From Urechis unicinctus (Eukaryota > Annelida > Polychaeta > Xenopneusta > Urechidae), in the NCBI GenBank assembly GCA_034190875.2, contig CM067344.1, forward strand, positions 21,793,189-21,857,188: DNA of 64,000 nucleotides. Reading direction: 5' to 3'. The notes under the pieces were generated by a model. It saw only the letters and a program-made list of their open reading frames with translations. It made no database searches and had not been told where the DNA came from. Position 1 is the stretch's first letter. Each line of letters opens with the position of its first letter. Of the stretch, positions 4,440 to 46,971 are shown piece after piece. The position numbers were made by a program, and so were the translations under genes.

Positions 4440-4975
4440 GTGATATTCCTTTCGATTTTCCCGACCGCTGTGTATGGGTTCCCTAGGTGCTTACTAGCAG
4501 GGTGTTACCATATTCTAGACGCTGGGTTACTATAGAGTGCACAACAGACTTAGCCACCACTACAGTTTAATAGCGTTTTATGTTGCTCCGTTGAAAATGT
4601 GAAAAAAGTCCGAAAGGACCCCAGGCCCTTAACACACCGCATCTACTGAATGTTAACCAATCGCGCGTACTGAGACCTAGTTCTTTGGCCAAAATGTTTT
4701 TCATTTTTAAGCTTCAAGCTTAATGTCTGATACCTATGCTTTCACAGTTTCCAAGCAGCATCCTTCCACGTCAATCACAGCCATGTTGTGGAGCTGCTAG
4801 TCGTCAGCCATGATTTGGTGCTCGATACGGGGTGCTATGTCGTCACCTGTTTGCTCAAAGTACCGCTACATGGCGGGTGGTGGATACTTTAAGTGAGACA
4901 CTGATTTATACGGCTCTTGTCCAACCACCGCACTCTGTGACCTCTAGCGATATGAGCAGGGCTGATTAGCTCAGT
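4440..4975 (-). pseudogene. LINE reverse transcriptase relic, block A copy 1
   Basis: Read on the minus strand this matches the relics at 24,172-24,800 and 36,490-37,115. It retains the VHSIVTxRLEYGNTLL-like segment near 4,500-4,545, which lies downstream of the catalytic domain in CR1/Jockey-type LINE polymerases. It has lost the 192 bp that in copies 2 and 3 encode the LLDQSAAFES motif. Stops and frameshifts are frequent. It is a fossil, present before the segmental duplication. Confidence 0.65.
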
Positions 4976-5355
4976 CTATATCGAATTCGGCGTTACTGCG
5001 GCAGGTTTGTGCGTATGACGGCTTCGTGCGAGGCAATACTGTGCAACTGGCGGGAGATGGGTTATTCACCTACGTAAGCTCATGCAGCACGGTGTTACCT
5101 GCTGACGTTGTGCGAGCTTGAGGTTCTGTGACATTGTGACCGATCAGTCGAAGCATGGCTTATAAGGATGGGCGTACTGATACTGTGTTTGTCCCATAAA
5201 ACTAAAGAAAGGAAACGTTTCATACATTCGTCGTCTTCAAAATGGTTAAGTGACAATTGGTTAATATATTCAAGCAGAAAGGGATTAGGTGTGGTGGGTA
5301 TGTAGCATAAAGTGTTTCATTGTTGGGTCAATTGAGCTTAATATCTGTGAGTGTG

Positions 5356-5442
5356 AGAGTGAGTGAGTGAGTGAGTGAGTGAGTGAGTGAGTGAGTGAGT
5401 GAGTGAGTGAGTGAGTGAGTGAGTGAGTGAGTGAGTGAGTAT
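5356..5442. repeat. (GAGT)n tetranucleotide microsatellite
   Basis: Nearly perfect GAGT/GTGA repeats, expanded relative to block A copy 2 (about 25,245-25,270) and comparable to copy 3 (37,626-37,678). Confidence 0.95.
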
Positions 5443-7263
5443 GTGTATGTGTGTGTGTAAGTGCGTGTGCCGTGAGTACCTTAATCGCGTATATATCAGT
5501 GATTGTCGGTTTCCGCATTAATACCAGCGACTAACGCGAAACGATGACCGTCGTGGAAGTATTAACCCGATCCATCGCTACGATGCTTGACACACACTCA
5601 CCATCCGAGGCTTTCACATGAAATCGATGGTTTCATAAGAATCTCTCAGGAGTTAATATGCTGTTGGAATTCTTACATGTATGGTATGTCTGGCAAAATA
5701 TCATAAATATTCATTTCTCAGGCTTCTCCGACGAGCGACATAATAGGCGTGTAGCTACAGCAGCTGCTGTCCCTCTGATGTTGTTTAATCTGCGATAAAG
5801 TAACTCTAGGCTTGCCATGTCTGACGACATCTACTGCTGTCATCTTAGCAGCTGTTAATGACGACCGTGAACTTAACACATTAACTATCGACTATACACC
5901 TCTTCATCTGGGTTCATTTCACATTTCGCATAGTTTTATTTCATCCGCGATGTGAATGGGACAGAGCTGCTGAAAACAAGGATGAGGAGAATGCTTGTCC
6001 GAACCAAGCATTACAAGAAACCGAATAAGCACAGACAAGAGGGTACTAAAACTACAATTTTCTTGATGACCTGACCCAAAACGACCCATTTCATGGTGGC
6101 ATAAATAATGTATTGATCTTGAATATGTTTCATATGTGTTTGATCGGTAGTTGTACTTTTCTAAATTTCAATAAAGGGTATCATTCGACATGTTGCAAAA
6201 GGATATATTGATGAATCATGAACCAACAAAAAGAAAATATAATCTGCCATTAAATTTCGTCCAAGAAATATATACCGAAATATTGCCGGTGTACCTAACT
6301 AAGAGGCGCTTTCTCGGTGAGTTAACGATTATTACTGTGACAGTTGCAAGAACGAATATTGCCATTTGCATTAATGGGATTTCCTTATGGTGGTAACCCA
6401 TGTAAGAGCCACATCGTCTCCTAAGAGACACGACGCCCGGCGTGATGACCCAAAGCCTCAACGGATTACGGATGTGCCTTAGATATGAGATCGTGCGGTT
6501 TGTAATACAATGGTCAACATCAACCGCTGTGATTACACTATGTTGTTTGAATGAAGTTTCGGTGCGTAGGCGCTTGTATTTCTTTGCAAACGAGTTTCCA
6601 TTTGGCAAACATTAATTGGAAATGCTGTCGTGCTAGGAGCCATCAATCGATAACTTGCCCAACTGTGTGGAGAAAATACTTCCTCGTACCAAATATCAAA
6701 GAAAATAGGGGTACATTGCAAATAATTCAATAACAAAATTCATACTGGTGAAGTCGTTTTCAAGCTTACCACGAAACTGATGAGGATGGATAATGACAAT
6801 CATAGCGAAAATGACACAAAGAGGAGCCCCCTTTAGGCTGCATTTTTACTTGACTTAAGTGATAAATGCTTAACTATTGTCAACCCGCAACTTTCAGCAC
6901 GATATCTGAAAGTAAGAACTCCTCGAGTTAAAATTGATGGTAATGTTACCAGTGTACGATATTATCAATAACGATGTTTTGACTTGTCTCGGTAACTTAA
7001 ACACTATGTGATACACTGCGTCAAAGAGCCATTGTTACGTTGAAGTCGTAATGGAACACTATACAAAATTATTCACCTCGGTTAATAAAAGAGTTAACAC
7101 CTCAAAGCCGGCACCGCCCGACACACCCTGCATACAAATACACCCCCATGGTTGCACTCTCTGAGGTATTGTCAAACTGCCATTTCAAAAATAGTGGCCC
7201 CAAACAATATGAAATGACGGCTACTTATGCTATTCGTTTCTGTGCATATTCTTCACTGTGCAT

Positions 7264-19600: not shown

Positions 19601-19750
19601 GCACAGTGCTCCATGCGCGTGTCGAAGCTATGGGTGCTAAAATATCGCTATCTAAGACAAAGCTTTGCTTTATAATGAGTACCGTTGGATTGGGAAAAAT
19701 CTTTCCTCGGGCGGACCAATACCGAACGTTTAATACGAATAGGGTTCCAT

Positions 19751-21099
19751 GAATGCTCGAAATCATGCTATTTGTTGTGCAGACTAAGTATGATCCATCC
19801 TGAAATCAATGCTGGTGGTAATCCAATTATCCCTTCTGCATGATATGGCTAAGAGTATATCAGATGTATTCTCAACATCAATGAACGAATAAACTGGTTT
19901 ACACCACTTAAGTCCCTTGTTATACCACCTCACTGAGACTTGAGGCAACGAATTATAGATTCCTTCATGAGAATACCAAAGCATATAAAAACCGCAGTAT
20001 GTTTGCGTGTCCGTGAGAATTGCATGCTATACATTTCATAAACACCAACCGCTTGAGAGAGATGTTGTCTTGTTATCATGTGGAATGATTCTAACCCAGT
20101 GGATGGGCATCAATGAATCACTGCTAACTGACTACGCCCTGATGACACAGTAACACCCTACTATCGAGTATCACTATTTCTGGTCGAGCTTGCTTTGATT
20201 TGATATGACGGTCATTTTTCTGTACTGAATCCCAACAATCTTCTGCTCTTCCGACAATCTTGACGACCCCTTCATCGACATCACAAACAAAGCTGGTGTT
20301 GCCTCACAATTCATGTCTACGATGCGAATGTCTTGCAATTTCGAGTTTAATAGCATTTGGATGACTGGTTGGATATATTTAATTGACGGTTTTGAGGTCA
20401 CCATGATGTGTGACCTTGCTCTGATATTGATGAAGTTATGCGCTCAATGAACACAGTCATATACTGCGAATGTTTATGTTCAGTGAATATCTCATCCATA
20501 GTTGCTCATTTTCGTAATCTTCGCGTGTTACCTGACAAGCAGAAGCTGGAAGATACTTTAATCCTCATACACAGTTTGATTATGTATTGCATGACATATC
20601 TCCTGGGATACACCCTTTCCTATATTTTACTGATTCTGTATATATGATACGATACAAGATCAGCACATGTTTTATAGAGTCACAAAGGTCTTCGTTCCCA
20701 TAGCAACTACATAATGGCTGGCGCAAGTAACTAGTGTACGTTTCTAATCATCAGCATACCAGGAGACAGCACGCTGTGTTTGCAGCATTGTATTTGCCCA
20801 ACACACCTTGCCAAATAGACTTATTCCACTGAGCCCCATGAAAATTGACATAGGCCGCTAAGTGTTAGCAATACATTATGTTTGATACAACTAGCGAATA
20901 ATGCATCACAATTAGTAGCCAAAGCTCTCCGTTCTTTGCCAGCGACGATACAGTGGTCAGAAGCATTCCCATTGTGACATATTGTAAAAAGAAAACGTTT
21001 ATTATACAAATACACAAAAGATTTGACAACTTAACACTCTCATTAAAAACCTGTCCTGTTATGTCGAAAGAAATGAAAACTACATCCGTTTATTTTATA
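19751..21099. other. Copy-1-specific interval between blocks B and C
   Basis: No counterpart in copy 2, where block B passes directly into the mosaic at 33,200. Contains only short, unsupported open frames on both strands. Confidence 0.6.
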
Positions 21100-22864
21100 A
21101 CATTTGATGATTATTCATGAACCGAGATACATTGCTATCGGCATGTGTATACTTTAGCTTTACAATGTTTATGAGAGTATTTACTCAGATGTGAGCAGTT
21201 TATATTTTTTGTTTCCATGTTGCTATTGTAGCAGCATGAGACCAATATATGTTTAGATACATGGGTTTGTTTAATGTTTTCGACCTGATATCCCAGTTGT
21301 ATCGTGTTGTCGGCTGTACAGAACCGTGTCACCTTACATATAACACTCTAAGCAACCTTATGCCGAACCATAGTTGCAATCCCATGTTACAAGATTATTG
21401 AGGGTGCACTCACATCGAAACCGTACTCAGTTACGCATATCACCATCGTGACAGATATTCATAGAGTTCAAAAGATTCATGGGGCGTCATTTCCGGATTA
21501 ACAAAGATAACTAATTATAAAGGAGATATTATACTGAACGTTTATGCGCCTCTTGAACGCCTGCATTTAAACCTCGACGTTCGGCAGCAGGGTCGAGTGT
21601 GGCATGTGTAGCACACAGCGCGAGCCTGTTATATTTATATTTATTGCTTTCATGTTGCTGTTATTTTAATAGTGTATACCGTAAAGCGAATGAAATCACC
21701 ATAGAACTCGCTCTGTTCCTATTGATGCCTAAGACGGCTGGCTGCAGACGACGATTTGCATCAGACGTTATTGCACCATGAAGTTGCGTTACACATAAAC
21801 AGCGGCTGTTAACACAGTCATCGGCACGATTTATTGTGCAATGTACAATTATCACCGACAGAGCAACATCCGCGGCAGAAGGTGAAATGAATAATCAAAC
21901 TCATACGAGACAGATATGACAAATTAATGGTCGCTTACACATTTTCGATTAATCACATGACCGTAGCATTAACAGAGTCAAAATAGGACTCATAACAGTG
22001 AAAATGATCATACTCGAACGGATGTAAAATCATCATCAGTGTCTTAATAATTGGACAGAGGCAGACCCAATGATCTATAACGTATTGCTTGTGTGAAATA
22101 TCATCTGACCAGGCTATAGCACTACCACATCGGACAGGCTATAGCACTACCACATCGGACAGGCTATGGCACTATCGGACAGGCTATATACACTATACCA
22201 CATCGGACAGGCTATGCACTACCACATCGGACAGGCTATAGCACTACCACATCGGACAGGCTATGGCACTACCACATCGGACAGGCTATAGCACTACCAC
22301 ATCGGACAGGCTATAGCACTACCACATCGGACAGGCTATAGCACTACCACATCGGACAGGCTATAGCACTACCACTTCATGCGGACTATATCACTACCAC
22401 ATCGGACAGGCTATAGCACTACCACATCGGACAGGCTATATCACTACCACATCGGACACAGGCTATAGGGACAGACTACAGCACTACCACATCGGACAGG
22501 CTATACCACTATAGCACTACACATCGGACAGGCTATAACATTCATTTGAGAGTTCGTAGTCAAAATCATTTGACACCGATAACAAGTGAATAACTATTCG
22601 TAGGAAATGATAATGGAGTTGGTTTAACAGCTACATTCGGACGGTGTCCACAATCTACGCGTTATATGAAGCGTTTATCTCTGTGCTGCTGGAACCGAAC
22701 AATGTTTGTCCCATGAGCAATCATAGTTTATTGTAATGGCACAGAGGAGCTGGGGCGTATCATTTATCGACGGTACGTGCTGAACAAAGAGGTCGTTGAC
22801 AAGAATATTACACGATGACATGACGAATAAGCTGAGCTGTGTAATTGATATTCTTAAATGCTTT
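21100..22864 (+). repeat. Segmental duplication, block C copy 1
   Basis: From TTATTCATGAACCGAGATAC (about 21,111) through the minisatellite to the junction with block A copy 2. Counterpart tracts at 33,408-35,184 are interleaved with block A sequence. I see no gene. Confidence 0.8.
22112..22540. repeat. 25-bp minisatellite
   Basis: About 16 or 17 head-to-tail copies of CTATAGCACTACCACATCGG followed by ACAGG, with a few shortened or rearranged units (for example near 22,165-22,190 and 22,375-22,390). There are no unique spacers, so it is not a CRISPR array. A shorter and more degenerate array occupies the homologous place at 34,635-34,828. Confidence 0.95.
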
Positions 22865-24171
22865 GTCCCGCAAACTTATGCTGCAATCAATAAATCATTT
22901 GCCACAGTGGCGTTAAACAAATATGAACAGATGTTCTGTAAATTACAAATAACACTTATCGCGTAAGTTTTATGACGCATCCCTCGTGCTCTTCATATTG
23001 TGGGTCCAAATAAACCAACAGAGGAAAGGAAATAGAACTGTATTCATCTTCGGGCTGCCACCGTTTACATATGGCGATGTGGGATAATCTGTGATGCCAA
23101 CCGCAGTTTACTCCATCGACAGAAGTAGTAATGGCACACCCTCTTAATTACTCGACTAAAGCAAAACACCAGTTGTCTCTGTTTGTATAATCGCGGTAGT
23201 TGATTTATACAGTCGCGCATAGATTTGCTTTATATGTAAATGTGACATATATCCTTAGTTGCAATAAATTCAGGCAACATCCCACGGTACACTCTCGCAG
23301 CTTAAATCATGCATGGGAGTGGGTAGCACAAAGGACTGAGATTACAGCAGACATATCATGGCCCACTATACGGCCACTTCAGGTTCTATTCAGCTTGACA
23401 GGATGATGCATTGAATTTGCTTGTCTGCCACCAGACTGGCTACCCTGTGTTTAAGCTTGGCGAAGGATTAACAACTATGAAATGAAGTGAATTATATACC
23501 GCTGTCGGGCTCATCACATTTATACTTCATCTTATCGTATGCGTCCCATCCAATAAGCGTCAGAGTTTCCGATGATAGAAATATACTGACCTTAATGAGA
23601 TCTATTGAATATTAGTACCTATGAACAGCCACCATGCTGCGAAGTGGTACCACGGCAAATAATTGTCATGATAGCACCTCTGGTAGTTCATGCGATGAAT
23701 CATTGGAAATGAAAAACATACACTTTCAGTAGTAATTTCAAGTCAGCAAAGGGTTCGGTCATAACGACCACGCAACGCTTTTCCGTCTTACTTTGGCGTT
23801 TTCTATGATCCTAGGCTTTTTCACTTTATTTACAGCTACATTTACAGACCACATGACACAGCATGCTCGCAGGCACTTTACAGCTGAATCATAAGTTAAT
23901 GAGAACTGAATACGGCAGTATCATACATGAGGGACGTTTGAAAGTGCCTGTAGAGGAAGCCTTACTCGGGTCATCTGGTTAACCGTACACTCTTGCTTTG
24001 TGACGGTGGGGTTTGGGATGTGGGGTGGGATGGAAAGGGGTTGTGGCACTGCTGGTTGAAATTGATGGATCTTGTGATTTAGCAAGGGCGAGTACATGCA
24101 AACAGCGATGATCAAAGCCAGAAAGGCTTGCGAACACGCGTTGATGTCATTCATTACAAACGTAATGTAGT

Positions 24172-24800
24172 CATACGTGATATTCCTTTGGGTCCTTTGG
24201 GGCTTATGCAAAATTATGATAGGCAGTCCTACTAGCAGGGTGTTACCATATTCTAGACGCTTTGTTACTATAGAGTGCACAAGAGACTTAGCCACCACTA
24301 GAGTTTAATAGCGTTTTATATTGCTCCGTTGAAAATGTGAAAAAAGTCAAAAGCACCCCAGGCCCCTTAGCACACCGACATAGACTGAATGTTAACCAAG
24401 CGCGCGTACTGAGACTTAGTTCTTTGTCCAAAATGTTTTTCCTCTTTAAGCTTCAAGCTTAATGTCTGACACCTATGCTTTCACAGTTTCCAAGCAGCAT
24501 CCGTCCACGTCAATCACAGCCGTGTTGTAGAGCTGCTAGTCGTCAGCCTTGAAGTGGTGCTCGATACTGGCTGCTATGTCGTCACCTGTTTGCTTAGCGG
24601 CTTGGTGTACATGACTAGCCCAAGTACCGATACCTGACGGGTGATGGACACTATAGGAGAGACACTGATTTTAGACGGCTCTTGTCCAGCCACCGCACTC
24701 TGTGACCTCTAGCGATACGAGCAGGGTTGAGTAGCCCAGTGATTCAAATGCAGCGGACTGGTCTAGGAGCACAAATGCACGCGAAGATTCGTTTAAAAGA
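24172..24800 (-). pseudogene. LINE reverse transcriptase relic, block A copy 2
   Basis: Reading the minus strand from 24,790 downward gives, in the correct order for a CR1/Jockey-type polymerase: AFVLLDQSAAFESLGYSTLL (motif A region, about 24,722-24,782); YTKPLS (about 24,600-24,620); ADD then QLY (motif C, about 24,530-24,550, with a stop between); CLETVKA and SDIKL (about 24,455-24,500); and LVHSIVTKRLEYGNTLLVGL (about 24,225-24,286), the conserved segment after the palm. Stops and frameshifts occur throughout. The element lies antisense to the duplication's reading here and is shared with copies 1 and 3, so it inserted before the duplication. Confidence 0.78.
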
Positions 24801-27699
24801 TTTTGAGATTGCTGTGTCTGTAACGTCTTGTAGACAGTCTGTCTCTCGCTGCAAAGATTGACACTACAAGGCTGGCAATCTATTCCAGTGGCTACGACTT
24901 TCCGAATATAGTTCCTTTGAATTTGAGATTTTCTATATCGAATTCGGTGTTACTGCGGCAGGTTTGTGCGTATGACGGCTTCGTGTACTGTGCAACTGGC
25001 GGGAGTTGGGTTATTCACCTACGTTAGCTCAAACGTGTTACCTGCTAGTTGTGCTGGCTTGAGGTTCTGTGTAGTGACCGATCAGGCGAAGCATGGCTTA
25101 TATGTTGAGTCACTTGTTTGTCCAATTTCAGAGCATGAATTCGTCGTCTTCAAAATGGTAGTGACACTTGGTTAACATATTGAAGCAGAAAGGGATTAGG
25201 TGAGTGGGTGTGAGCGTGAGTGTTTCATTGTGAATTGGCATTTCAGCAGTGAGTGAATGAGTGAGTTAGTTAGTATGTGTAGTATGTGTATGCGTGTGTG
25301 TAAGTGTGTGTGCGTGTGAGTACCTTAATAGCGTATATATCAGTAATTGTCGGTTTCCGCATTAATACCAGCGACTAACGCGAAGCGGTGTTCGTTGTGG
25401 AAGTATTCACCGGATCCCATCGCTACGATGCTTGACACAGACTCACCATCCGAGGCTTTCACATGAAATCGATGGTTTCATAAGCATCTCTCAGGAGTTA
25501 ATATGCTGTTGGAATTCTTACATGTATGGTATGTCTGGCAAAATATCATAAATATTCATTTCTCAGGCTTCTCTGACGAGCGACATAATAGGCGTGCAGC
25601 TACAGCAGCTGCTGTCCCTCTGGTGATGTGCAACCTGCGATGACGTACCTCTAGGCTTGCCATGTCTGACGACATCTACTGCTGTCATCTTAGCCGAAAT
25701 ATAGGGTAAATTACCGAGAGCGAGCTGTTAATGACGACCGTGAACCTAACACGTTAACTATCGACTACACCTCTTCATGATTCCATCGAGCAATAGCCAT
25801 GCTTTGTTCTTCATTGTGATTGTAGCTTAACATATGCAAACACAAGCACATCATGCCATTTGTATTCCTTGCGGTGAAACCTCACAACAACTCTATAAAT
25901 GTTTATCCTCTGGCTGCGAATTTGAATACACACATTTGTTAGTACAGCTACTTTAGCTGTGGACCCAGTCGTAATCATTAACACCAATAATTAATATGAG
26001 TTCGTGTGAATAGCTGTGTCGCAAAATACGCGGAATTATTGATTACCAAGGGCATGAACTATTTACCAAAAGCCTGGTGGGTAAATAGCCAGTGTTTTTG
26101 ATGATTAAAGCGTTCAATAATCTACGATCAACAGTTGATGAAATGTATCGGTTTGTATGTACTTTGTACAGTCTACAATGTCGAACCAATACTTTAACAC
26201 TTTATAAAGCACTTAACAAATTGACACCTACAGTTCTTCTACTGGAATCAAGGCTGGCATCTGTGATATATTGTGGTGAACCTACTTTTTAAATGTTATT
26301 GCAACAATCACTGCTCTAACACATTTATGATTATAATAGATAGACAATGGAATGAATGGCACTTTCATCTGGGTTCATTTCACATTTCGCGTTGTTTTAT
26401 ATCATCCCACGTGATGTAAATAGGGCGGCGCTGCTGAAAAATATGGTGCGGACAATGATTTCCCGAACCAAGCATTATAAGAAACCAAATAAGCACAGAC
26501 AAGAGGGTACTTAACCTTCAATTTTCTAGATGACCTGACCCAAAACGACACATTTCATGGTGGCATAAATAATGTATTGATCTTGAATAGGTTTCATATG
26601 TGTTGATCGGTGTTGAGCTTTATAAATTGCAATAAAGGGTATCATTCGACATGTTTCAAAAGGATATATTGATGAATCATGAACAAACAAAAAGTAAATA
26701 TAATCTGCCATGAATTTTAATCGTCACGAGTCAAAGAAATATATACCGAAATATTGCCGGTAGACCTAGCTAAGACGCGCACTCTCGGTGAATTAACGAT
26801 TTTTACTGTGACAGTTACAACAACGAAATATTGCCATTGGCATTAATGGGATTTCCTTATGGTGGTAACACATTAGAGCCACATCGCCTCCGAAGAGACA
26901 CGACGCCTGGCGTGATGCCCCAAAGCGTCAACGGATTACGGATGTGCCTTAGATATGAGATCGTGCGGTTTGTAATACAATGGTCAACATCAACCGCTGT
27001 GATTACACTATGTTGTTGAGTGAAGTTTCGGTGCATATGCGCTTGTATTTCTATGCAAACGAGTTTCAATTGGGCAAACATTAATTGGAAATGCTGTCGT
27101 GCTAGGAACCATCAATCGATAACTTGCCCAACTGTGTGGAACAAAATACTTTCTAGTACCGAATAACAAAGAAAATAGGGCTACATTGCAAATACTTCAA
27201 TAACAAAATTCATTATGGTGAAGTCGTTTTCAAATTTACCACGAAACTGATAAGGATTGATAATTCAATCATTGCAAAACTGACGCAAAGAGGAGCCCCA
27301 TTTAGGCTGCATTTTTACTTGACTTGAGTGATAAATGCTTAACTATTGTTAACCAATTGTCAAAATTTCAGCACGATATCTGTAAGAAACAACTCCTCGA
27401 GTTAAAATTGATGGTAATGTTACAAGTGATACACTTGTTGTCAATGCGTCAAATAGCCATTGTTACGCTGAAGTCGTAATGGAACACTACGCAAAATTGT
27501 TCACCTCTGGTTCATCAACGAGTTAACATCCCGCCCGCCCGCACCGCCCGACCCACCCCGCATATATATACACCCGATGGTTGCACTCTCTGAGGTATTG
27601 TCAAACTGCCATTTCAAAGATAGTGGCCCCAAACATGATATGAAATGACGGCTACTTGTGCTATTCTTTTCTGTGCATATTCTTCACTGTGCATTTATA

Positions 27700-27935
27700 T
27701 GAATATATCACAAACATGATACTGAGAATTTAAGGACACAACAACATCTCGAATATTTCTTTCCTAAATGTATAGTAATTTTCATTTACGGGCTGATCTT
27801 CATCATATAATTCATCGCACACGACGATGTTACGATTACCATTGAATCAACCATTAAAGATAACTATCTTAGTGTTATGTTCAAAGTTGGGTGAAACTGT
27901 GAGGACCATGTTATATTGATCAGCAATATGTTTCA
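27700..27935 (-). pseudogene. Galectin-like fragment, block A copy 2 (stop-containing)
   Basis: Same frame as 7,264-7,506 but with an in-frame stop replacing the Arg of the FNGRF motif (the minus-strand frame reads FNG, stop, FNGN). Otherwise close to copy 1, including NENYYTFRKEIFEM. Confidence 0.45.
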
Positions 27936-28225
27936 TCCGACATTAACTTATTGCTTATGTCCTATGAGTCACATTCGTGGGATTCCGCATCTACCAATTT
28001 GCATCTCAATCATTATAAATATGCAATAAGCACATAATACGATCAGCGTCATAGTTATATGTAACATTAACGTATCCCGATCAGCTGGAGATCCATTACC
28101 AAATGATGTTTTATTCCAGAGCAAGTCCATTACAACGGTCACAACAACGCTGCACTGGCTATTTCCATTTAATGATAAACATGGGTATAGTCGAAATATC
28201 CGAACTCAAATCGAGCAATGTTAGG

Positions 28226-28508
28226 AGGCGTTATGAGTCGTTTCTGTCAAAACGAATTATGCCTGGTAATAGCAGGGCACATGTTTGATTAAATAACTCC
28301 TGATTATTCCTTAATTTCTTTCCTTAAAACTGATGCTTCAGAATGAGGTCATAGCACGCTTTTACGTGATTATATGTCTCTTGGGTTCTATTGCAAAGAA
28401 TACCTTTGTTAAATCTTTTCAACCAGAGGCCTCAAGACGAATCAACTATTTGCGGAGACAAACGATGCAAAGATATCATATTTCAACAAGTACTGGTTTC
28501 TTTTATCA
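28226..28508. other. Copy-2-specific spacer between blocks A and B
   Basis: Unrelated to the 6.9 kb at the same position in copy 1. A 75-codon open frame from 28,333 runs into block B with no recognisable motif. Confidence 0.6.
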
Positions 28509-29480
28509 ATCTAAAGAAGCACTCCATGATTTCCCTTTTTATCATTTTTGTAAAATTTAACGACTAATTTTTATTTTTGATATACACCTGCCAGGCAAAA
28601 GAATGGAATATCGGATAACTGGCTAGCAACGCTCACTGACCTGATGTTTTGAGTAGGAGAATGTGGAATGAACATAATTAGAAAACTTACGTTAGCTATG
28701 ATTCAGCATATAAATAAACAGTAATAGCAATGCTTTTGTTAAAATCACACACCAAGAAAATAAAAAACATAGTATTGAGTGCAGCGCTCCACATTCAATG
28801 AAACTATTAGATTTACCCTTCACAACGACGTGATAACAGTAGACTGCGATCAACATCGACAACAGTCCAGATTCTTATGCATATTTAAATGATATCATAC
28901 CAATATTGTACACTTCGGAATTCGATTGCGAACTCACGCTGAGTATGGTGTAAAGCATCCACGTTTCACTCTATAATGCATTTGCTATAGCATAGAAGGT
29001 GTGCGACTCAGCATTGATCATCAATATTGGATGGGCGCTGCTGTCATGTTTATTATCCGGTTTTCTGAAGACATAAACATGCTGAGGCAAGTAACGGCTA
29101 GAAAGCCACAACTTCTTCCATTGAATCACCAATATAATCGGTGCATCACTACATGCGGGCGAGCGAGCTCACATCTAACTTCTTTGTCGATTTATAACAG
29201 GATTTGGAGAACTGGCCTTATCAGTGTGGTCACGGATACATGATACTTTGGCATGTGTGTATTTTTAATGTCCGCGAGAGAGCGCTGCCAAAGATCAATA
29301 ATGGAAAACAGCCCAATCTCCAAGCATCACTTCATCATATGCTTTATAGTTATGGTAATTTCTTGGTCTGATAGAGCGAACAAAATGCCAATAAATACAA
29401 ACGTCGCTGGATGTTAAACGTTAAAACACCTGAGTCTGTGCTAGTCGATTACTTGTACAGGGGGTAAGTATATATTTACT

Positions 29481-29642
<162 letters not shown>

Positions 29643-30239
29643 GAGTGTGTGTGCATATATGTATATGTATATATGTAAATATATGAATGTCACCTTAGGT
29701 AATGTCAGCTGAGCTTTGTGGTGGAATGTTTTTTGACCCTTATTGAAAGGTTGGTGTCATATCATTTATATTACCTTGGCAATCACCTTTCAGCAATGGA
29801 ACACAATAGGTTAAAGGATCGGAGAGAAGAAAGATAAATTGCAAATACAAGTCTCGTCACGACCACTCAGCTACACACTAACAAACAATTCTATCATAAA
29901 AGAAAATAATGATATCTGTAATTCGTTCCGGCTATTTCGCCTTTTTTAAGCAATAATTTAGTGTTACATGTTATAGATGTTAGATGAAAAGAGGCAAAGG
30001 CGTACGCATATATATAACAAATGATGACGCAGCCAATGCGACATTCTCGAACATCCACGACAGCATTCATGGAATTGGCAAATTAATAACACATGAACTA
30101 TGTCACTTTGTTTTTCATTAGGACTAGAAAAATGAACATATTTTGGTAAATAGAATCGAATCTGCGGAGAGGGTGTCATTGCTTGTTGGCATTGATAACG
30201 ATGGGTAAATATTGTAGGCATCGTTTTGTGAGACAAAGA

Positions 30240-30570
30240 TTTGACAGTGCCATTAATGCTCATTAAATGATACTCAGACAAATACACAGCTGGAGAGAAA
30301 ACCCTCCTGTTGCCCTCACCCAAAAAACCGTGGATCCATAGAGCATGTAATGGTTCTTTACCTCGGTGACCATTGGGTCAGGCACATCTCGTTCCATTTG
30401 AAGCAGTGTAGTTAAAAAGTCAGTTCTGTGGCTATGACCTTGCCGCTTTACAGGAGTAGACATCTCCTTACATTGGAGACAGATGCACCAGTCCGGTGAA
30501 GTGGCAGTTGGTAGAGGGTGGAATCCTTCTGTCGCTGTGGGCTGTTGTGACATAAACGGGGTGACTGTCT
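30240..30570 (-). pseudogene. P2X7 C-terminus-like zinc domain relic, B copy 2
   Basis: Duplicate of the relic at 16,380-16,690. The minus strand reads PDWCICLQCKEM (about 30,462-30,497) and NHYMLYGSTVFW, then in another frame GEGNRRVFSPAV, where one base is missing relative to copy 1, so the SSCV block is destroyed. Damage independent of copy 1 supports a non-functional state. Confidence 0.52.
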
Positions 30571-33500
30571 ACACAAACTCTTCACTGTCTGTCCATAATG
30601 TCACCCAACATCAGCCACACCCCATCCAGACTTCGCCCAAAATCCTGAAACATAATCAGATGTTTGCTTTTTTATGGATATAATATCTTCAATGTAAATT
30701 GCTCTCTGTGACCAAAATTTTAATAAGGTTTTTTCGAGCAACTGAGGAGACTGCTGAATGCACACGAAATCAGTAATTTAATCAAAAATGTTATGACTAT
30801 TATACTGTTTGAGCTATAATAGAAAAAAAAGCCGATTGGTAATTACACAGATTTAAGGTCTTTTGTCACTCAAAATTTCATCAAATTCATTCCAGAAATT
30901 CAGGGCTTCTAGAACATCAGCATGGTGTTGAAATAGCCATGGATCCGAATTACATGCCCAAATCAAAAGTTTCCTTAGTGTGCGTTGCAACAAAATTACC
31001 AACCCCAAAAATCATACCCCACGCCCCTAACCCCTCCCCCAAAATACCCCGTTGTTTTATAGATGAAATAATTCAATTTCGAACAAGTTACAGATGGCGT
31101 TATATTCCAAAATGTTTTAGGCAAGAGCATCTAGACATCGATTTTTGGCTTGTACATGGGCGGGGCTTTCCCGCAGGTATGAGGCTATTTATTATTAAAT
31201 TTAAGAATGAGAACTAGTCAGCATATGGTTTATATTTTACTTAGGCACGCATTCACAAATGTCTGCCTTGTCACCAACAACCATTGATATCCTTAACAAA
31301 AAATGAATCCTACTGGGCTCATGTTGCCTTATGGTTATGTGACACCTTAAAATTATTCCATTAAAAACATATAATCAGGTCATTGAGGTTTTGATAAATG
31401 TTTGCATCCTTGACTATTCACTGGTATTCGCTATAAAAGAATAGACCCATGGTTGATTCATACAAATAGTGCCTTGTCATCAACCATTGATATTCGTAAT
31501 ACAAAAAGATATCACAAGGCTGTGGCAAACTTAGTCACGAACAAATCTGGGAAGCATGTTTGAATCGGTCGGTGTTCGCTGTCAAAGATTAGAGAATGAA
31601 TAAAATATATAAAGATGCATTAATATAAATCGTACAAGGCACATATATCGGTTAATAGTATATCAATCCTCCTCTCAGTGAATTTCAGATGGTGGTGTGT
31701 GTTAGTCCTAGGTAAACCCCCGAGCCCCTCGTCTTCGCTTGATTACGTCATCTCCTCATTTCCTTCACCAATATAATCCCGCTGACGTTCTCATCAATTC
31801 GCTAGATACTGTTTCGGGCCAATATTTACCATCCCCATCTTGTCCACGGCTCCCTTGAGAGTGTTACTGATTAATAATGTAACCTTGGTTCAAATCTGTA
31901 AATCAGCGTTTTGGCGTTCGTAGTCTCACGTTGATCACAGCGGAAGCATCTTTGCTGCATACTGTATGAATCTAATTGTGAAGGCTATAATTCATTTAAT
32001 GATCGAATGACGGCATAGTTTTGCAGTTTCATAAGACCCAAGTGTTTAAAAGCAGGGAGCTAATGGCGCCGTTAGACACCGGCAGTATCTCAAATAGAAA
32101 CCAACAGGTGTGTCAACCCAAAATAGCTTTTACTCTGATATACAACATTTTCTCTCATCCCATACAAAGGATTTATCTGGACGCTAGTGATGATTGAATG
32201 TAGCTCCAATGTGCGCATGTGCGGGGAGGGAGTGGGGGTAGGCGGGATAAGATGGTATAACAAACGCCCCAAAGGAGAAGCGTTATCCATAATCATTCGT
32301 AAAACAATGAGTCCAATATGCACGATTTGTAGAATAAAATTGATTAAGAGACAACTGACCACAGACGATGGTCTTCTGTGAGATATCAGAGTGGATGCAT
32401 ATATATTGAAGGCTTTTGATCACATTGGTGAGGAGCAAGGCATCGTGTCGATGGTTCCCCTCAAATCATATACGTTCGGTGTACATGATAGTATCAAGCT
32501 CATTCAGCATGTTTTTGAGGCCTAGGTGCAAATATTCTTTAATTTACCGTCCTTGCGATGATTGTATACACTCCCATCAATACGTCCGTTACTGCCTCAT
32601 AATTGCATTTCAATTTCACTCATTGCCCTAACTACGTGTTTTAACATGTGCTACTAGTATAGTTAATAATAGTGGCTGCAGACATATGCTACGTAATACT
32701 AGAGCATCAAAAAGCCAAGGACGCCGCCATATGATATTGTCAAAAGGTTGTGTGAATGCGCAGAATGCAGGAAGACCTGGGCTCATTGAGTTTGGTTTCA
32801 AACAGCCGCTATATTGGATATAAGTCGTAGTTCACTCATTCATATTAACTTTTTCAAAGAGTAGCGTGCAAAGTTCAACAATAATGTGTTCGTCGTGGTG
32901 GGGCAAACCAAGATTAAACATCCAGGAAATTATGTCACATTTAGCTGTGATAATCCTGCAAATGGGTTCTGTATAAACGGAAGTAACCCGATACAAAAGC
33001 TGACCCGTATATGTACAGTGCTCCATGCGCGAATCGTAGCTATGGGTGCAAAAATATCGCTATCTAAGACAAAACTTCGCTTTATAATGAATACCATTGG
33101 GTGGGGAAGAATCTTTCCCAGGGTGGATCGATACGGCACTTTGAATACGAATAGGGTTTCACAGTTTGCTCCAAATAGCATATGTTTCACTACAATTACA
33201 GACCTGTGCATCAGAGCTAATAGTCAAAGCAGCCTTGAAGTGGTGCTCAATACTTGGTGCTATACGTGATACACAAATTTAGACGGTTTCTTGTTCAGCC
33301 ACCGCACTCTGTGACCTCTAGCATTTGAGCAGGGTTGAGTACTCCCATTAAAAATCAAATCCAGCGGATGGTCTAGGAGAAAATGCACGCGAAGATCCGT
33401 TTTTTATAAACATTGTAATGGTTATTCATGAACCGAGATACATCGCTATCGGCATGTGTATACTTTTGCTTCAAATGTTATGAGAGTATTTACACAGATA

Positions 33501-33840
33501 TGATCAATTCATATGTTTTTCATGTTGCTATTGTACCAGCATGCACGAATGATATCTCCCTATGTTTATGAGACCAATGAATGTCTAGATACATGAGTTT
33601 TCCGATCAGGCAAAGCATGTCCCAGTTTTATCGATTGGGCGGCTTGACAGGACCGTGGTCGTCCCACAAAACTAAAGAAAGCAACGTTTCATGAACCATA
33701 GTTGCGTCATTTTTAAATGCAATTCCACTTGGTTATTAGATTATCAAGCTGAACTCACATAAGACATGGTGGGTAAGTAGCATAAAGTGTTCGTTGCAGG
33801 TATTGTGGGGTCAATTGGCATTTAGAGCATAATAAATGTG

Positions 33841-33891
33841 GGTGAGTGAGTGAGTGAGTGAGTGAGTGTCAAGTGAGTGAGTGAGTGAGTG
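33841..33891. repeat. (GAGT)n microsatellite within the mosaic
   Basis: GTGAGTGA repeats interrupted once by TGTCAA. This is an A-type feature placed inside C-type sequence. Confidence 0.9.
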
Positions 33892-34634
33892 ATTGACAAA
33901 GATGACTAAGTGGAAAGGAGATACTATACCGAACGTTTATGCGCCTCTAGAACGCCTACATTCAAACCTCGACGTTCGACAGTAGGGTCGAGAGTGGCAT
34001 GTGTTATATATTGATTTATTGCTTTCATGCTGCTGTTATTTTAATAGTGTATACCGTAAAGCGAATGAAATCACCATAGAACTCGCTCTGTTCATATTGA
34101 TGCCTATCGCTGGATGCAGACGATGATTTGCCATCAGACGTTATTGCACATGAAATCGAAGTTTTCGTTACACATCAACAGGAGGCTGTTAACACAGTCA
34201 TCGGGAATTCTTATATGTGCAATATGTCTGGCTAACCTACCGACAAAGCAACATCCGCGGCAGAAGTGAAATGAATAATCAAACTCATACAAGACAGATA
34301 TGACCCACTAATGGTCGCTTACACATTTTCGAAGCTAAATACCACCATCTTGCAATGACGTACCTCTGGGCTTGCCATATCTGAGGACATCTAAACGCTG
34401 TCATCTTCGCCGAAATATTATTTTCATATTTTTTTAATGCCATCGTCCTTGTAATGACGAACGCCATGTTTTGTAACACGTTAATGCATTATGGCATTAT
34501 AAGAGTAACAATGATCATTCTCGAACGGATAAAAAATCGTTATTATTAATCATCATCAGTGCCTTTATAATTGAACAGAGGCAGACACAATGACCTATTA
34601 CGTATTGCTTTGTGTGAAATATCATCTGACCAGA

Positions 34635-34828
34635 TCGGACAGTCTATAACACTTCCACCACATAAGACAGGCTACAGCACTACAACATCAGACAGGCTAT
34701 AGCACTACCTCAACGGACAGGCTATAGTACTACCACATCGGACAGGCTATAGAACTACCACAACGGACAGACTACAGCACAACCACATCGGACAGGCTAT
34801 ACCACTACCACACCGGACAGGCTATAAC
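34635..34828. repeat. Degenerate 25-bp minisatellite, copy 2
   Basis: About eight variant units of the 22,112-22,540 repeat, with substitutions such as AACGGACAG and ACACCGGACAG. Confidence 0.9.
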
Positions 34829-36489
34829 ATTCATTTGAGAGTTCGTAGTCAAAACTATCACAATAACCTTGTGGGGTAAATAGCCAGTGTTTTGTGATGA
34901 TTAAAGCGTTCAATAATCTAAACAGATCAACAGTTGATGAAATTGTAGCGTATCGGTTTGTACCATTCGTACGGTGATTCCACACATTATACAGTCTTAT
35001 CGCTATGCTGATTGCACCGGACAGTGTTTGTCCCATGAGTAACGTAGTTTATTTTAATGGCACCGAGGAGCTGGGGCGTATCATTTATTGACGGTAAGTG
35101 CTTAACAAAGAGGTCGTTAATGGAATATTAACGATGTATTGATATTGAATAAGTTGAGCTGTGTAATTGATATTCTTAAATGCTTTGTCCAGCAAACTTA
35201 TGCTGCAATCAATAAAGTCATTTGCCACAGTGTTTAAAACAAGATATATTGATGAATCAAATAACACTTATCGCGTAAATATTATCTGCCAATCCATAGT
35301 GCTCTTCGTATTGTGGATCCAATTAAACAACAGAGGAAAGGAAATAGAACTAAGCATCATCTCTCTGTGCCAACCGTTTACAAATGTGTCAGTGTGGAAT
35401 AATCTTGCCATGCCACCGCAGTTTACGGGATTTCCTTCGACAGAAGCCGTAATGTAATACCACATCGACCTCCGAAGAGACACGCCTCCTGGTTTGATGC
35501 CCCAACGCATTTTAAATGATTGATATAGTCGCGCATATATTTGCTTTGTATGAAAATGTGACACACATTCTTAGCGTCAATAAATTCAGGCAAAATCCCA
35601 CGGTACACTCTCGCAGCTTACATCTTGCATGGGAGTGGGTAGCACGAAGGGCTGAGATTACAGCAGACATATCATAGCTCAGTATACGGCCACTTCAGGT
35701 TCTATTCAGCTTGACAGGATGATGCATTGAATTTGCTTGTCTGCCACCAGACTGGCTACCCTGTGTTTAAGCTTGGCGAAGGATTAACAACTATGAAATG
35801 AAGTAAATTATATACCGCTGTCACATTTATACTTCATCTTATCGTATGCGTCCCATTCAATAAGCGTCAGAGTTTCCGATGATACAAATATACTGACCTT
35901 AATGAGATCTATTGAATATTAGTACCTATGAACAGCCACCATGCTGCGAAGTGGTACCACAGCAAATAATGGTCATGATAGCACCTCTGGTAGTTCATGC
36001 GATGAATCATTGAAATAAAAAACGTACACTTTCAGTAGTAATTTCAAATCAGCAAAGTGTTCAGTCATAACGACCGCGCAACGCTTTTCCGTCTTACTTC
36101 GGCGTTTTCTATAAACTAGGCTTTTTCACTTTATTTACAACTACATCTACAGACCGTTCGATTCATGACACAGCATGCTCGAAGGCACTTCACAGCTGAA
36201 TCATAAGTTAATGAGAACTGAATACGGCAGTATCATACATGAGGGACGTTTGAAAGTGCCTGTAGAGGAAGCCTTACTCGGGTCATCTAGTTAACGGTGC
36301 ACTCTTGCTTTGTGAGGGTGGGGTTTGGGATGTGGGGTGGGATGGAAAGGGGTTGTGGCACTGCTGGTTGGAACTGATGGATCTTGTGATTTAGCAAGGG
36401 CGAGTACATGCAAACAGCGATGATCAATGCCAGAAAGCCTTGCGAACGCGCGTTATGTCATTCATTACAAACGTAATGTAGTCATACAA

Positions 36490-37115
36490 GATATTCCTTC
36501 GATTTTCCCGGTTTATGATTAAAAAAAAATTATGATAGGCAGTCCTGCAAGCAGGGTGTTACAATATTCTAGACGCTGTGTTACTACAGAGTGCACAAGA
36601 GACTTAGCCACCACTACAGTTTAACAGCGTTTTATATTGCTCGGTTGAAAATGTGAAAAAAGTCCACAAGGACCCCAAGGCCTTAACACACCGCATAGAC
36701 TGAATGTTAACCAAGCGCATAATGAGATTTAGTTCTTTGTCCAAAATGTTTTCCCTCTTTAAGCTTCAAGCTTAATGTCTGATACCTATGCTTTCACAGT
36801 TTTCAAGCAGCATCCTTCCACGTCAATCACAGCCGTGTTGTAGAGCTGCTAGTCGTCAGTCTTGAAGTGGTGCTTGATACTAGATGCTATGTCGTCACCT
36901 GTTTGCTTATTGGCTTGGTGTACATGGCTAGCCCAAGTACCGGTACCTGGCGGGTGGTGGACACTATACGTGAGACACTGATTTTGACGGCTCTTGTCCA
37001 GCCAACGCACTCTGTGACCTCTAGCGATACGAGCAGGGTTGATTAGCCCAGTGATTCAAATGCAGCGGACTGGTCTAGGAGCACAAATGCACGCGAAGAT
37101 TCGTTTAAAAGCTTT
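36490..37115 (-). pseudogene. LINE reverse transcriptase relic, block A copy 3
   Basis: Third copy of the minus-strand relic. It keeps the LLDQSAAFES-like block near 37,050-37,105 and the RLEYxNTLL-like block near 36,545-36,600, with its own additional substitutions and indels. Confidence 0.72.
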
Positions 37116-37625
37116 TGGGATTGCTGTGTCTGTAACTACTTGTAGCCAGGCTGTCTCTCGCTGCAAAGATTGACACTGCCAGGTTGGCAATCTATTCCAG
37201 CGGCTACGAACTTCCCACGAATCTTTCATTTGAATTTGAGATTTTCTATATCGAAATGGGCGTTATAGCGGCAGGTTTGTGCATATGCCGGCTTCGTGCG
37301 AGGCAATTGCTGTGCAACTGGCGGGAGACGGGTTATTCACCTACGTTAGCTCATGCAGCACGGTGTTCCCTGCTGACGTTGTGCAAGCTTGAGGTTCTGA
37401 GACATTGTGACCGATCACGCGAAGCATGGCTTATAAGGATGGACGTACTGATACTGCGTTTGTCCAATAAAACTAAAAGAAGGAAACGGTTCATACATTC
37501 GTCGTCTTCAAAATGGTAAGTGACACTTGGTTAATATATTCAAGCAGAAAGGGATTAGGTGTGGTGGGTATGTAGCGTAAAGTGTTTCATTGTGATATCA
37601 ATTGGCATTTCAGAGCGTAATAACT

Positions 37626-37678
37626 GTGAGTGAGTGAGTGAGAGAGTGAGTGAGTGAGTGAGTGAGTGAGTGAGTGTT
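37626..37678. repeat. (GAGT)n microsatellite, block A copy 3
   Basis: GTGAGTGA repeats followed by a TGTG-rich tail to about 37,730. Confidence 0.93.
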
Positions 37679-40070
37679 AGTATGTGTATGTGTGCACGCG
37701 TGTGTGTAAGTGTGTGTGTGTGTGTGTGAGTACCTTAATCACGTATATATCAGTGATTGTCGGTTTCCGCATTAATACCAGCGACTAACGCAAAACGATG
37801 TTCGTCGTGGAAGTATTAACCGGATCCCATCGCTACGATGCTCGACACAGACTCACCATCCGAGGCTTTCACATGAAATCGATGGTTTCATAAGCATCTG
37901 TCAGGAGTTAATATGCTGTTGGAATTCTTACATGTATGGTATGTCTGGCAAAATATCATAAATATTCATTTCTCAGGCTTCTCCGACGAGCGACATAATA
38001 GGCGTGCAGCTACAGCAGCTGCTGTCCCTCTGGTGCTGTGTAACCTGCGATGACGTACCTCTGGGCTTGCCATGTCTGACGACATCTACTGCTGTCATCT
38101 TAGCAGAAATATAGGGTAAATTACCGAGAACGAGCTGTTAATGACGACCGTGAACCTAACACGTTAACTATCGACTACACCTCTTCATGATTCCATCGAG
38201 CAATAGCCATGCTTTGTTCTTCATTGTGATTGTAGCTTAACATATGCAAACACAAGCACATCATGCCATTTGTACTCCTTGCGGTGAAACCTCACAACAA
38301 CTCTATAAAAGTTTTATCCTCTGGCTGCGAATTTGAATACACACATTTGTTAGTATATACAGCTACTTTAACTGTTAACCCAGTTGTAATCATTTACACA
38401 AATAATTAATATGAGTTCGTGTGAATAGCTGTGTCGCAAAATACGCGGAATTATTGGTTACCAGGCGCATCAACGATCACAATAGCCTTGTGGGGTAAAT
38501 AGCCAGTGTTTGTTTTACGATCAAAGCATTCAATAATCTATGATCAACAGTTGATGATATGTATCAGTTTGTTAGTACATTGTACAGTCTACAATGTCGA
38601 ACCAATACTTCAGGCACTATAACGCACTTAATGAATTGGCACTTTGACAGCAGTTTCTTCTACTGGAATCAAGGGGTTCTGTGCAATTACAGCATCCAGG
38701 CTGTGTTTAACATCTATGATATATTGTGGTGAACTACTCTTGAAATGTTATTGCGACCGTCACTGCTCTTACACATTTATGATTATAATGGATCGACAAT
38801 GGATTGGATGTCACTTTCATCTGGGTTCATTGCGCATTTCGCATTGTTGTTATATGTCATCCGTGGGGTGAAAAGGGCAGTGCTGCTGAAAACAATGGTG
38901 CGGGGTATGATTTCCCGAACCAAGCATTACAAGATACCAAATAAGCGCGAACAAGAGGGTACTTAAACTACCATTTTCTAGATGACCTGACCCAAAACGA
39001 CACTTTTCATGGTGGCATAAATAATGTATTGATCTTGAATAGGTTTCATATGTGTTTGATCGGTGGTTGAGCTATATAAATTGCAATAAAGGGTATCATT
39101 CGACATGTTTCAAAAGGATATATCAGTGAATCATGAACAAAAGAAAAGTAAATATAATCTGCAGTGAATTTTTGTCGTGAGTCAGCGAAATATATACCGA
39201 AATATTGCCGGTAGACCTAGATAAGACGCGCACTCTCTTTGAATTAACGATTTTTACTGTGACAGTTACAAGTACGAAATATTGCCATTGGCATTAATGG
39301 GATTTCCTTATGGTGGTAACACATGTAAGAGCCACATCGCCTCCGACGAGACACGACGCCTGGCGTGCTGCCCCAAAGCGTCAACGGATTACGGATGTGC
39401 CTTAGATATGAGATCGTGCGTTGTGTAATACAATGGTCAACATCAACCGCTGTGATTACACTATGTTGTTTGAGTGAAGTTTCGGTGCGTAGGCGCTTGT
39501 ATTTCTTTGCTAACGAGTTTCAATTGGACAATTATTAGTTGACAATGCTGTCGTGCTAGGAGCCATCAATCGATAACTTGCCCAACTGTGTGGAAAAAAA
39601 TACTTTCTGGCACCAAATATCAAAGAAAATATCGGTACATTGCAAATACTACAATAACAAAATTCCTTTTTGGTGAAGTCGTTTTCCAGCTTAACACGAA
39701 ACTGATGAGGATGGATAATGACAATCATTGCGAAACTGACGCAAAGAGGAGCCCACTTAAGGCTGCATTTTTACTTGACTTGAGTGATAAATGCTTAACT
39801 ATTGTCAACCAGCAACTTACAGCTCGATATCTGTAAGTAAAAAACTCATCGAGTTAAGATTGATAATAATGTTACCAGAGTAAGATATTATCAAAAACGA
39901 TGTTTTGACTAGTCTCGGTAACTTAACCACTGTGTGATACACTTGTAGTCAATGCGTCAAAGAGCTATTGTTACGTTGAAGTCGTAATAGAACACTACAC
40001 AAAACTGTTCACCTGCGGTTAATCAACGAGTTAAGCACAGCCGGACCCACCCCGCATACATGTACACCTC

Positions 40071-42731
40071 ACGCGTACCGTTGCCGCTATGCGTTTCCGA
40101 TCACGGCGTTACGATCCGTCTCAGCTTTAAGTAAATGTTTACAGGGTTTTCGATCGAAAAGTATGGTTAAACAGCCATCTGCCTTTTACCCACGCGTACC
40201 AAAAACTCGTAATTCGTAATTGCGTCTCATCTACACTAACCACGCACACAGCCCGTCTTCATCCCACATCCCTTTCCTTCTCCCTATCTCGAGGCCCTGT
40301 CTTTACATACTTCGATACCGTGTTCCCGGTAGTAGTGTTATTGGGATTAATAATTCAGACTTAGACCGATTAATATGCTCGTTGGCCGACCGTGTTCCTA
40401 ATATTGTAAATTAGATGATACGTTATTCACGCGGTGGTTACAGCATTGGTCTATATATTCCCATTGCTGTCGTCACGATCAACAGAGCTCAGTTTAATTT
40501 GAAACACCATCTATTGGTATGCATAGTCTGTAAATAATTTCGGATCCTGCTCGTTTGATTCCTGTGGATGTCCATGCGGTAGACATAAGCTGTACCGAAG
40601 TAATGCAATGTATTCCACCTTGTATTGTCTAACTAGACACTGTGTTATTTACCTGTCACTGCTTGGCGCTTGGTCCACTTCTTCAACGCAGAATGTGTAT
40701 TACTTCAGCGCTGTACTCAACGGCTGAGGGCATCCCACACGGTCACTTCGCAGCGAACGTCAGCTTGAGGGAAGAGCGATTAGATGAAATGTATTTGAAG
40801 GGCCACGGCTAAATCAGCATCACATTTAGGCGCAAATCGTCGGACTGATTGGTTTGTGCTACACTCATCCTACATGGATTGCTATTGTGCATCTAGACCA
40901 AGAACCAATTACTTATACCAGACAGCACGAAGACCGAACCATTTAAGGGATTGAAAAGTACATAAATAGGCTGATTTTGCATGCAGATCAACACTTACAT
41001 GGTGTATTATCCAAGAAGTATAGCTGGAAGCTTGTTTTAATCTTTCTGCTCCCACGCCTTATCTTTATCGGCCAGAATTCATGTGAAAGTATCATCTGGC
41101 GTTGTCCAAGCACTAGACGACATTGCATTCTGAAATGATGACATGTGATTCCCTTTAAGACAATTCTTAATTTGTATTTGAGTCTGAACATTCACAGCAC
41201 AGTTTTTTTTCCGTAAAGCCATATGCCGCCCGGATATCAATCACTTGTGTTCTTGTGAATTTTTCTCCATGCAATGAAGGCCATGTTTAACATGCACAGC
41301 ACGTTAACGTCTCTGCTGCAGACAGCATGGTAGTCATGGACGACGGGTGACTCGTAGATGACGGGATGTGGTAGCTTTTCCCGCATAATGAAGCACTTAA
41401 CATATGCCATTCGCTGTATTAGGTACTGCACTTTGCTCGCCAGGGCGACGTTTCTCTGGCCGTTATGACTCTATGACGCATCAGAGGGGTTAATGTCGCG
41501 ATTGCTTATCCCACATGAGCTCAATACATGATGTGCCTAAGGATGGATGGATGGATGTATTTTGTAAATTGATACGGGTTTAGTGTGTTTTTAGAATTCA
41601 GTGATTGAGCCCGGGATGAGCAATTCAGATTGGAACTCGGGCTATCGCATAAATAGCTAATTACTTTAAGGCCAACGTGGCTGACTATGTAAATGCTGGC
41701 ATCGAAATCGTACATCAGAAGCGCGCACTGCCCCTAACCCTCCCCAGCATCCGGCTCAACGGAGGTGGCGCGCTGTGAAGCTCCCTGGCGTAAACGACAC
41801 ACACCGCCTGACGCCCTTTTCCTGGCATCCCTGAGCTGACGCTAGCCACTTCTCTCTGACCCTTTCTCCATGGACAAGACACCTCCACCCCTACCGCCTA
41901 TACTTGTGTAGATGTACCCGGCTCGTGCTGCGGTAGTTGGTGACAGGCAATTGGCGTGAGCGAGACAGCATCGAGTGCTCCAATCCACGTTATACGCTCT
42001 CACCTCACCCCTAACATTGCTTTTGTTCTTAATACATACAAGCAGTAGACAGCGGATACACACGGCCGGCAGCACCAGCGCCAGCTTCTAGCGCAGTTCT
42101 CTTATTATGATTCTGGCTTGAGTAAACATTATCAGTTTCAGCTCTACAGCTCTCAAGAATGTTTACCAGTCTCGGAGGAACTTTGCTCCCGGGAACCCAT
42201 AAGCATTAGTCGGCCTTCCATGAAAGCCTCGTTGGAAGGAGCGTGTGTAAAATAGTGCCTTGCGAGAAGTGCTCATTTAAGGAGAGATAATGCGAATTTG
42301 AGGAGCTAGTGGAAGCCAGGTGCGACTGATTACCGAGAAGCGTGAAAACTGACACCTGTACCTGCGTAATTAAACGAACGAAGTGGATATACTGTTGGCT
42401 GCATGTACCATTGTTTGCGGACTCTGTTTCTCTCTTTCCGAAAAAAGGAATGATGGGAGTCGGGAGACAGTCATACAGTGACATCAGGCTGTGTCGGTCC
42501 GTGTCTGCGTCATAGGCTTTCTGGGTCCGTGCGTCACGCCACCCTCTACCAAAATAATCACCAGGTCGCCCTCTTGCAAAAAAAAAAACAAACCCGGGCT
42601 TGTTCGTGATGGCGGTGGAACAACTTTGATAGTGCTTGTCATCGAGGCGCCCTCTTCGTGGTGGTATTGCTCATACGAAAAACATCTAGCTAAATATTAA
42701 CTTGCTAATGCTGCTGCAAACACTCTAAATC
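40071..42731. other. Single-copy upstream region of the SYT15-like gene
   Basis: No counterpart elsewhere in the window. Locally GC- and CpG-richer than the duplications, especially 41,720-42,100, as expected near a promoter or 5' UTR, but I cannot place a start site. A GGAT tetranucleotide run lies at about 41,543-41,556. Short open frames (for example 42,206-42,484 minus, 42,491-42,700 plus) have no recognisable domain. Confidence 0.5.

Positions 42732-46971
<4,240 letters not shown>

What the first reader, a model, noticed from the sequence alone, without database searches (positions are those of the whole stretch)
33200..35520. Zippered mosaic of two unrelated parts of the duplication
Over 2.3 kb the sequence switches at least fifteen times between two source sequences: (X) block C running into the start of block A (compare 21,100-23,215) and (Y) the middle of block A (compare 24,530-26,930). 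An example is 33,595-33,880, where CCGATCAGGCAAAGCATG (Y) runs into CCCAGTTTTATCG (X), then CCCACAAAACTAAAGAAAG (Y), GAACCATAGTTGC (X), and TGGTGGGTAAGTAGCATAAA (Y). Both sources advance by about the same distance as the mosaic itself, so each tract replaces, rather than inserts beside, its counterpart. That lockstep is what a consensus drawn from two stacked non-homologous read sets would give. If it is real DNA, it would be an extraordinary record of serial template switching between parallel templates.
Basis: partly seen in the sequence, partly recalled or inferred. Interest (0 to 1): 0.85.

Follow-up and report, generated by a model that had tools for sequence, protein, structure and literature searches.

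The report
Stitched consensus of two DNA stretches
A 2.4-kb stretch of this animal genome assembly alternates many times, in step, between two unrelated sequences; this is what assembly software makes when it averages reads from two different molecules, so it is most likely not a real DNA sequence.

Summary
Window 33,157-35,516 alternates between X (20,870-23,201, end of block C into block A) and Y (24,479-26,926, middle of block A): 14 switches by a strict free-jumping alignment, 26-32 by register-bounded decoders. X and Y show no homology (best E 2.3). The tracts replace each other in register: in 10 of 13 Y excursions (8 of 13 with the decoder) X advances within 11 bases of the mosaic. Shifting the Y register by 400-1200 bases lowers the score from 1884 to at most 1499. 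By eye, no other stretch of the window shows it (+ strand).

Most likely it is a consensus artefact: noisy reads of two molecules with shared flanks and different interiors forced into one alignment. My own partial-order consensus of simulated near-1:1 stacks makes such zippers; 20:0 and 15:5 stacks make none. The real one has somewhat fewer, longer tracts than runs of similar Y share. The Y component is equally distant from the three Y copies in the window, suggesting a fourth copy or haplotype. Raw reads, platform and species are unknown, so this is favoured, not proven.

The parts
33157..35516 (+). Zippered segment: alternating tracts of X and Y in register
20870..23201 (+). Source X in copy P (end of block C into start of block A)
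   Evidence: the part before 21084 rests on weak matches (40 of 56 bases at 20870-20925)
24479..26926 (+). Source Y in copy P (middle of block A)
36792..39379 (+). Y counterpart in copy Q, intact and downstream of the zipper
4740..6456 (+). Y counterpart in copy R (lacks the part corresponding to about P 25,780-26,363)
32657..33176 (+). Left flank, ordinary duplicate of P 19275-19763
   Evidence: Y control 24 of 1557 bases for 31600-33156
35517..40068 (+). Right flank, ordinary duplicate of block A
   Evidence: Y control 0 of 1485 bases for 35516-37000

Best explanation
The segment is a consensus artefact of assembly or polishing. At this spot of a tandemly duplicated locus two kinds of molecule (two haplotypes, or two copies collapsed into one) share a left flank (block C up to about P 19,763) and probably a right flank (block A from about P 23,201) but carry non-homologous interiors of nearly equal length, X (about 2.33 kb) and Y (about 2.45 kb). 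Noisy reads of both kinds, in nearly equal number, were aligned end to end. The consensus followed whichever set was locally heavier and changed over where the two happened to be aligned, so X and Y replace each other in register. Shown: the mosaic, its register, its edges, the lack of detectable X-Y homology, and that a partial-order consensus of simulated stacks makes such a pattern. Inferred: that such a stack existed in this assembly, that both flanks were shared, and that the Y molecule is an unassembled fourth copy or haplotype.
For: Register kept without being imposed: X offsets 12,296-12,507 and Y (P copy) offsets 8,524-8,796. Replacement, not insertion: 10 of 13 Y excursions within 11 bases (Spearman 0.83 between tract length and X advance), 8 of 13 with P sources only. 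No X-Y homology. Sharp edges. Simulated stacks of 11:10, 6:5 and 21:19 at 12% error give 27-52 switches and 370-912 Y bases; the real segment with the same decoder gives 26 and 644. 12:8, 13:7, 15:5 and 20:0 stacks give 0-2 (six runs in all). Stacks that share only the left flank go on zippering past the right edge in 4 of 4 runs, the real sequence does not. [quoted passage not shown]
Against: No reads, coverage or second assembly could be seen, and platform and assembler are unknown; with HiFi-like error (0.5%) the one 12:8 run gave no zipper though the one 10:10 run did. No simulated run matches every measure: the real segment has somewhat fewer and longer tracts than runs of like Y share. 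The artefact needs a molecule flank-Y-flank that is not present in the window, of a length close to X by coincidence. The simulation uses my own consensus code and settings, not a real assembler.
Confidence: 0.88

Rival explanations
1. Real DNA made by serial template switching (MMBIR/FoSTeS-like): a polymerase alternated between X and Y held side by side, with both templates advancing in step.
For: The alternation is real sequence in the assembly and both sources are neighbours in the array. Tracts are about as diverged from their sources as the copies are from each other, as an old event would be.
Against: It would have to resume each template close to where it would have been, many times, between non-homologous templates. 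The MMBIR passages that I read describe annealing at microhomology on any nearby single strand, not a kept register. Rough count of shared bases at 28 switches: mean 3.5 against 4.6 inside tracts, no excess.
Confidence: 0.04
2. A single chimeric or heteroduplex molecule read as one consensus (strands X and Y paired through shared flanks in one circular-consensus read): a library-level variant of the artefact.
For: It also needs two shared flanks and gives register. It would work on an accurate-read platform. No call tested it.
Against: One bad read would have to win against all others at the locus; nothing here shows low coverage. The listing (3 of 4 papers shown) had no paper evidently on this.
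Confidence: 0.05
3. Many short gene-conversion tracts between related copies, or shared ancestry of X and Y seen as a mosaic.
For: The copies are tandem paralogues, where conversion is common (established knowledge).
Against: X and Y show no homology (best E 2.3). Block A start (R and P) and Y (R, P and Q) are kept elsewhere as separate contiguous sequences, so the mosaic is the odd one out there; the part of X before 22,877 has only copy P for comparison.
Confidence: 0.02

Closest known systems
Mosaic consensus of collapsed haplotypes or repeat copies in long-read assembly (PMC7545148, passages read)
   Same: One sequence blended from two sources that matches neither molecule; arises in duplicated or heterozygous loci.
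   Different: The passages speak of alleles and similar repeat copies; here the two interiors are not homologous, so the blend is a zipper of tracts rather than of single variants.
Consensus-induced masking in read correction (VeChat, PMC9636371, passages read)
   Same: A single consensus template cannot hold two haplotypes.
   Different: There one haplotype is overwritten; here the two alternate, as expected only near 1:1 support.
MMBIR / FoSTeS complex rearrangement (PMC2621351, passages read)
   Same: Several switches between templates in a short stretch.
   Different: Here 14-32 switches keep register with replacement, and no microhomology excess was seen.

Membership tests
Consensus artefact of two stacked read sets | Tracts of both sources in register, each replacing the other | tested here: met
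   (10 of 13 or 8 of 13 excursions within 11 bases)
Consensus artefact of two stacked read sets | A consensus of a balanced stack makes switches of this number and size | tested here: inconclusive
   Met in kind: searches give tens of switches near 1:1. No single run matches every measure; the real one has slightly fewer, longer tracts.
Consensus artefact of two stacked read sets | Single molecules are pure X or pure Y; junction k-mers lack read support | not testable with these tools
   No raw reads are held; the search of the window's assembly did not complete
MMBIR / FoSTeS | Microhomology at junctions | tested here: inconclusive
   mean 3.5 at 28 switches, 4.6 inside tracts; rough measure on diverged sources
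MMBIR / FoSTeS | Switch-carrying sequence present in single molecules | not testable with these tools
   No reads
Gene conversion between paralogues | Homology between donor and recipient | tested here: not met
   X against Y best E 2.3

The most novel reading that the evidence does not exclude
The mosaic is real genomic DNA: a polymerase or repair process alternated at least 14 times between two non-homologous templates held side by side and advanced both in step, leaving a tract-by-tract replacement record.
Probability: 0.04. Interest if true: 0.92.

Novelty: not a real feature. Interest (0 to 1): 0.2.

Why it matters
It shows from sequence alone what a stacked-consensus error can look like: in-register replacement between non-homologous sources, with sharp edges. 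Such a stretch could be taken for a complex rearrangement. A jumping alignment with a register-shift control could screen assemblies of duplicated loci for it. It also hints at a fourth copy or another haplotype of this locus that the window does not show.

Tried and rejected
Simple allelic deletion in Q, with Y reads from Q's own downstream sequence: not supported as the sole source, because Y tracts are no closer to Q than to P (32 sites match P only, 36 match Q only, of 650 columns). Consensus errors in the zipper could blur this.

Stack sharing only the left flank: four simulated runs went on zippering past the right edge (4 of 4), while the real sequence has no Y in the five 300-base bins after it. 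Y reads ending at staggered places were not simulated, so a left-anchored stack whose Y reads happen to stop there is not excluded. A fall of Y share from left to right is not significant (Spearman -0.52, p 0.18, eight bins; bins, test).

Microhomology at switches: no excess, rough measure.

Transposon as the reason for P's extra 19,764-20,870: only one 10-base direct repeat and one 12-base inverted pair found in 19,700-20,950; no evidence for one.

Species, in order to learn platform and assembler: the synaptotagmin-15-like gene's best hit is Capitella teleta, 66% identity over 74% of the query (120 of 204 hits listed, best first). A conspecific record would be expected near identity, and none is listed. 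An annelid or other lophotrochozoan is suggested, no more.

Papers: five searches (15 of 565, 15 of 20, 12 of 13, 2 of 2 and 3 of 4 papers listed). Beyond listings I saw passages only, in PMC9636371, PMC2621351, PMC8421209 and PMC7545148. No title or abstract start listed was evidently about a zippered consensus of two non-homologous read sets; that does not show that none is in print.

Failed scripts: (output format) redone; (a position missing in copy R) redone. In one search the X band was wide, so its drift figures for the real segment contain jumps of hundreds of bases; searches are used instead.

Full report
OBSERVATION. The window looks like animal DNA with tandem duplicates: P (14,718-28,222), Q (28,503-40,068) and R (1-7,806, block A only), and a separate duplicated set from 47,641 to the end. 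Against this background 33,157-35,516 of copy Q alternates between X (P 20,870-23,201) and Y (P 24,479-26,926). BLASTN shows the interleaved matches directly. A jumping alignment with free choice of resumption point gives 15 tracts and 14 switches, and the main alternation recurs when the whole + strand beyond 300 bases of each 2-kb chunk is the source. Register-bounded decoders find 26, 30 and 32 switches, depending on the Y copies offered and the start point. Shifting the Y register by 400 to 1200 bases either way (eight shifts) lowers the score from 1884 to 1466-1499, the Y bases from 812 to 0-139 and the switches from 32 to 0-16.

REGISTER. With no register imposed, X offsets stay within 12,296-12,507 and Y (P copy) offsets within 8,524-8,796. 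On the tracts, X advances within 11 bases of the mosaic in 10 of 13 Y excursions; the others differ by 67 (contains a GTGA microsatellite), 118 (contains the partly unresolved 34,418-34,449) and 41. The first Y tract, at the left edge, was left out of that count because X jumps there by about 1.1 kb. With only the P copy as source, 8 of 13 are within 11 bases and the median is 10.

EDGES AND UNIQUENESS. Outside the zipper the Y decoder finds 24 of 1557 bases on the left and 0 of 1485 on the right. The left edge lies where the match to P jumps from 19,763 to about 20,870. Reading the table by eye I saw no other such alternation between unrelated sources (+ strand only; microsatellite stretches are messy there, and changes between homologous copies do occur).

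SOURCES. X and Y show no homology (best E 2.3). In 13 Y tracts the mosaic matches P in 562 and Q in 566 of 650 columns. In the 507 columns with all three copies it matches P 430, Q 436 and R 425 times, with 39 differences private to the mosaic, while the copies match each other in 432-451. The Y component is thus not evidently the Y of P, Q or R, and a fourth copy or haplotype is the simplest source, though consensus errors could add private differences.

MECHANISM TEST. I wrote a partial-order consensus (match 3, mismatch -5, gap -4, recalled as a common polisher's setting) and gave it simulated reads of two molecules with shared flanks and interiors X or Y, each first diverged by about 10% from copy P. 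At 12% read error, four runs each, switches were 37-52 (10:10), 32-40 (11:10), 14-30 (11:9), 27-33 (6:5), 28-52 (21:19), 33-51 (5:5) and 28-53 (3:3); at 5% error 10:9 gave 12-24. Single runs: 20:0 and 15:5 none; 12:8 2, 0 and 0 at three error rates; 13:7 2; 8:12 8; 10:10 24 at 0.5% error. A further 28 runs at 2-8% error gave 16-50 switches at 10:10, 6:6, 11:10 and 20:19. The real segment, same decoder: 26 switches, 644 Y bases, median Y tract 38, longest 153, median X tract 127, longest 362, median drift 10. Each of these lies inside the simulated spread, but no run matches all of them: runs with a like Y share tend to have more switches and shorter tracts (nearest: 20:19 at 5%, 33 switches, 805 Y bases, median Y 36, longest 137). 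When Y reads shared only the left flank and were forced end to end, zippering went on past the right edge in 4 of 4 runs, unlike the real sequence. A near-1:1 stack with two shared flanks is enough to make this kind of segment; two haplotypes or two collapsed copies would supply it.

ALTERNATIVES. Real serial template switching would have to resume each template about where it would have been, many times, between non-homologous templates. The MMBIR passages that I read describe no such register, and the rough microhomology count shows no excess. Gene conversion lacks homology between partners. A heteroduplex consensus read is a variant of the artefact that cannot be told apart here.

LIMITS. 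Reads, coverage, species, platform and assembler are unknown. The search of the window's assembly did not complete eight times. The neighbouring single gene is synaptotagmin-15-like, closest to Capitella teleta at 66%, so the source is probably an annelid or other lophotrochozoan. If the assembly proves to rest on accurate reads without consensus across molecules, the artefact reading weakens and the read check becomes urgent.

Noticed in passing
351-2710: Copy R has a 2.36-kb insert at the position of P 23,232-23,236 (five bases shared by both sides), with an ORF at 1815-2279 that matches the hAT dimerisation domain (PF05699, 2e-11) and terminal inverted ends seen in the printed sequence: a hAT-like transposon that P and Q lack here.
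   Followed up: partly
19764-20870: About 1.1 kb present in copy P and not in Q, exactly at the zipper's left edge; no transposon hallmarks found.
   Followed up: partly
42729-46968: Exons of a synaptotagmin-15-like gene (best hit Capitella teleta, 66% identity; C2 domain in one of two exon pieces tested), apparently single-copy in the window.
   Followed up: partly
47641-64000: A second set of tandem duplicates, about 81-97% identical, with long TA-rich microsatellites; no zipper seen there.
   Followed up: no
22102-22565 and 34629-34852: Short tandem repeat (about 25 or 50-base units) whose copy number differs between P and Q; it falls inside the X part of the zipper.
   Followed up: no
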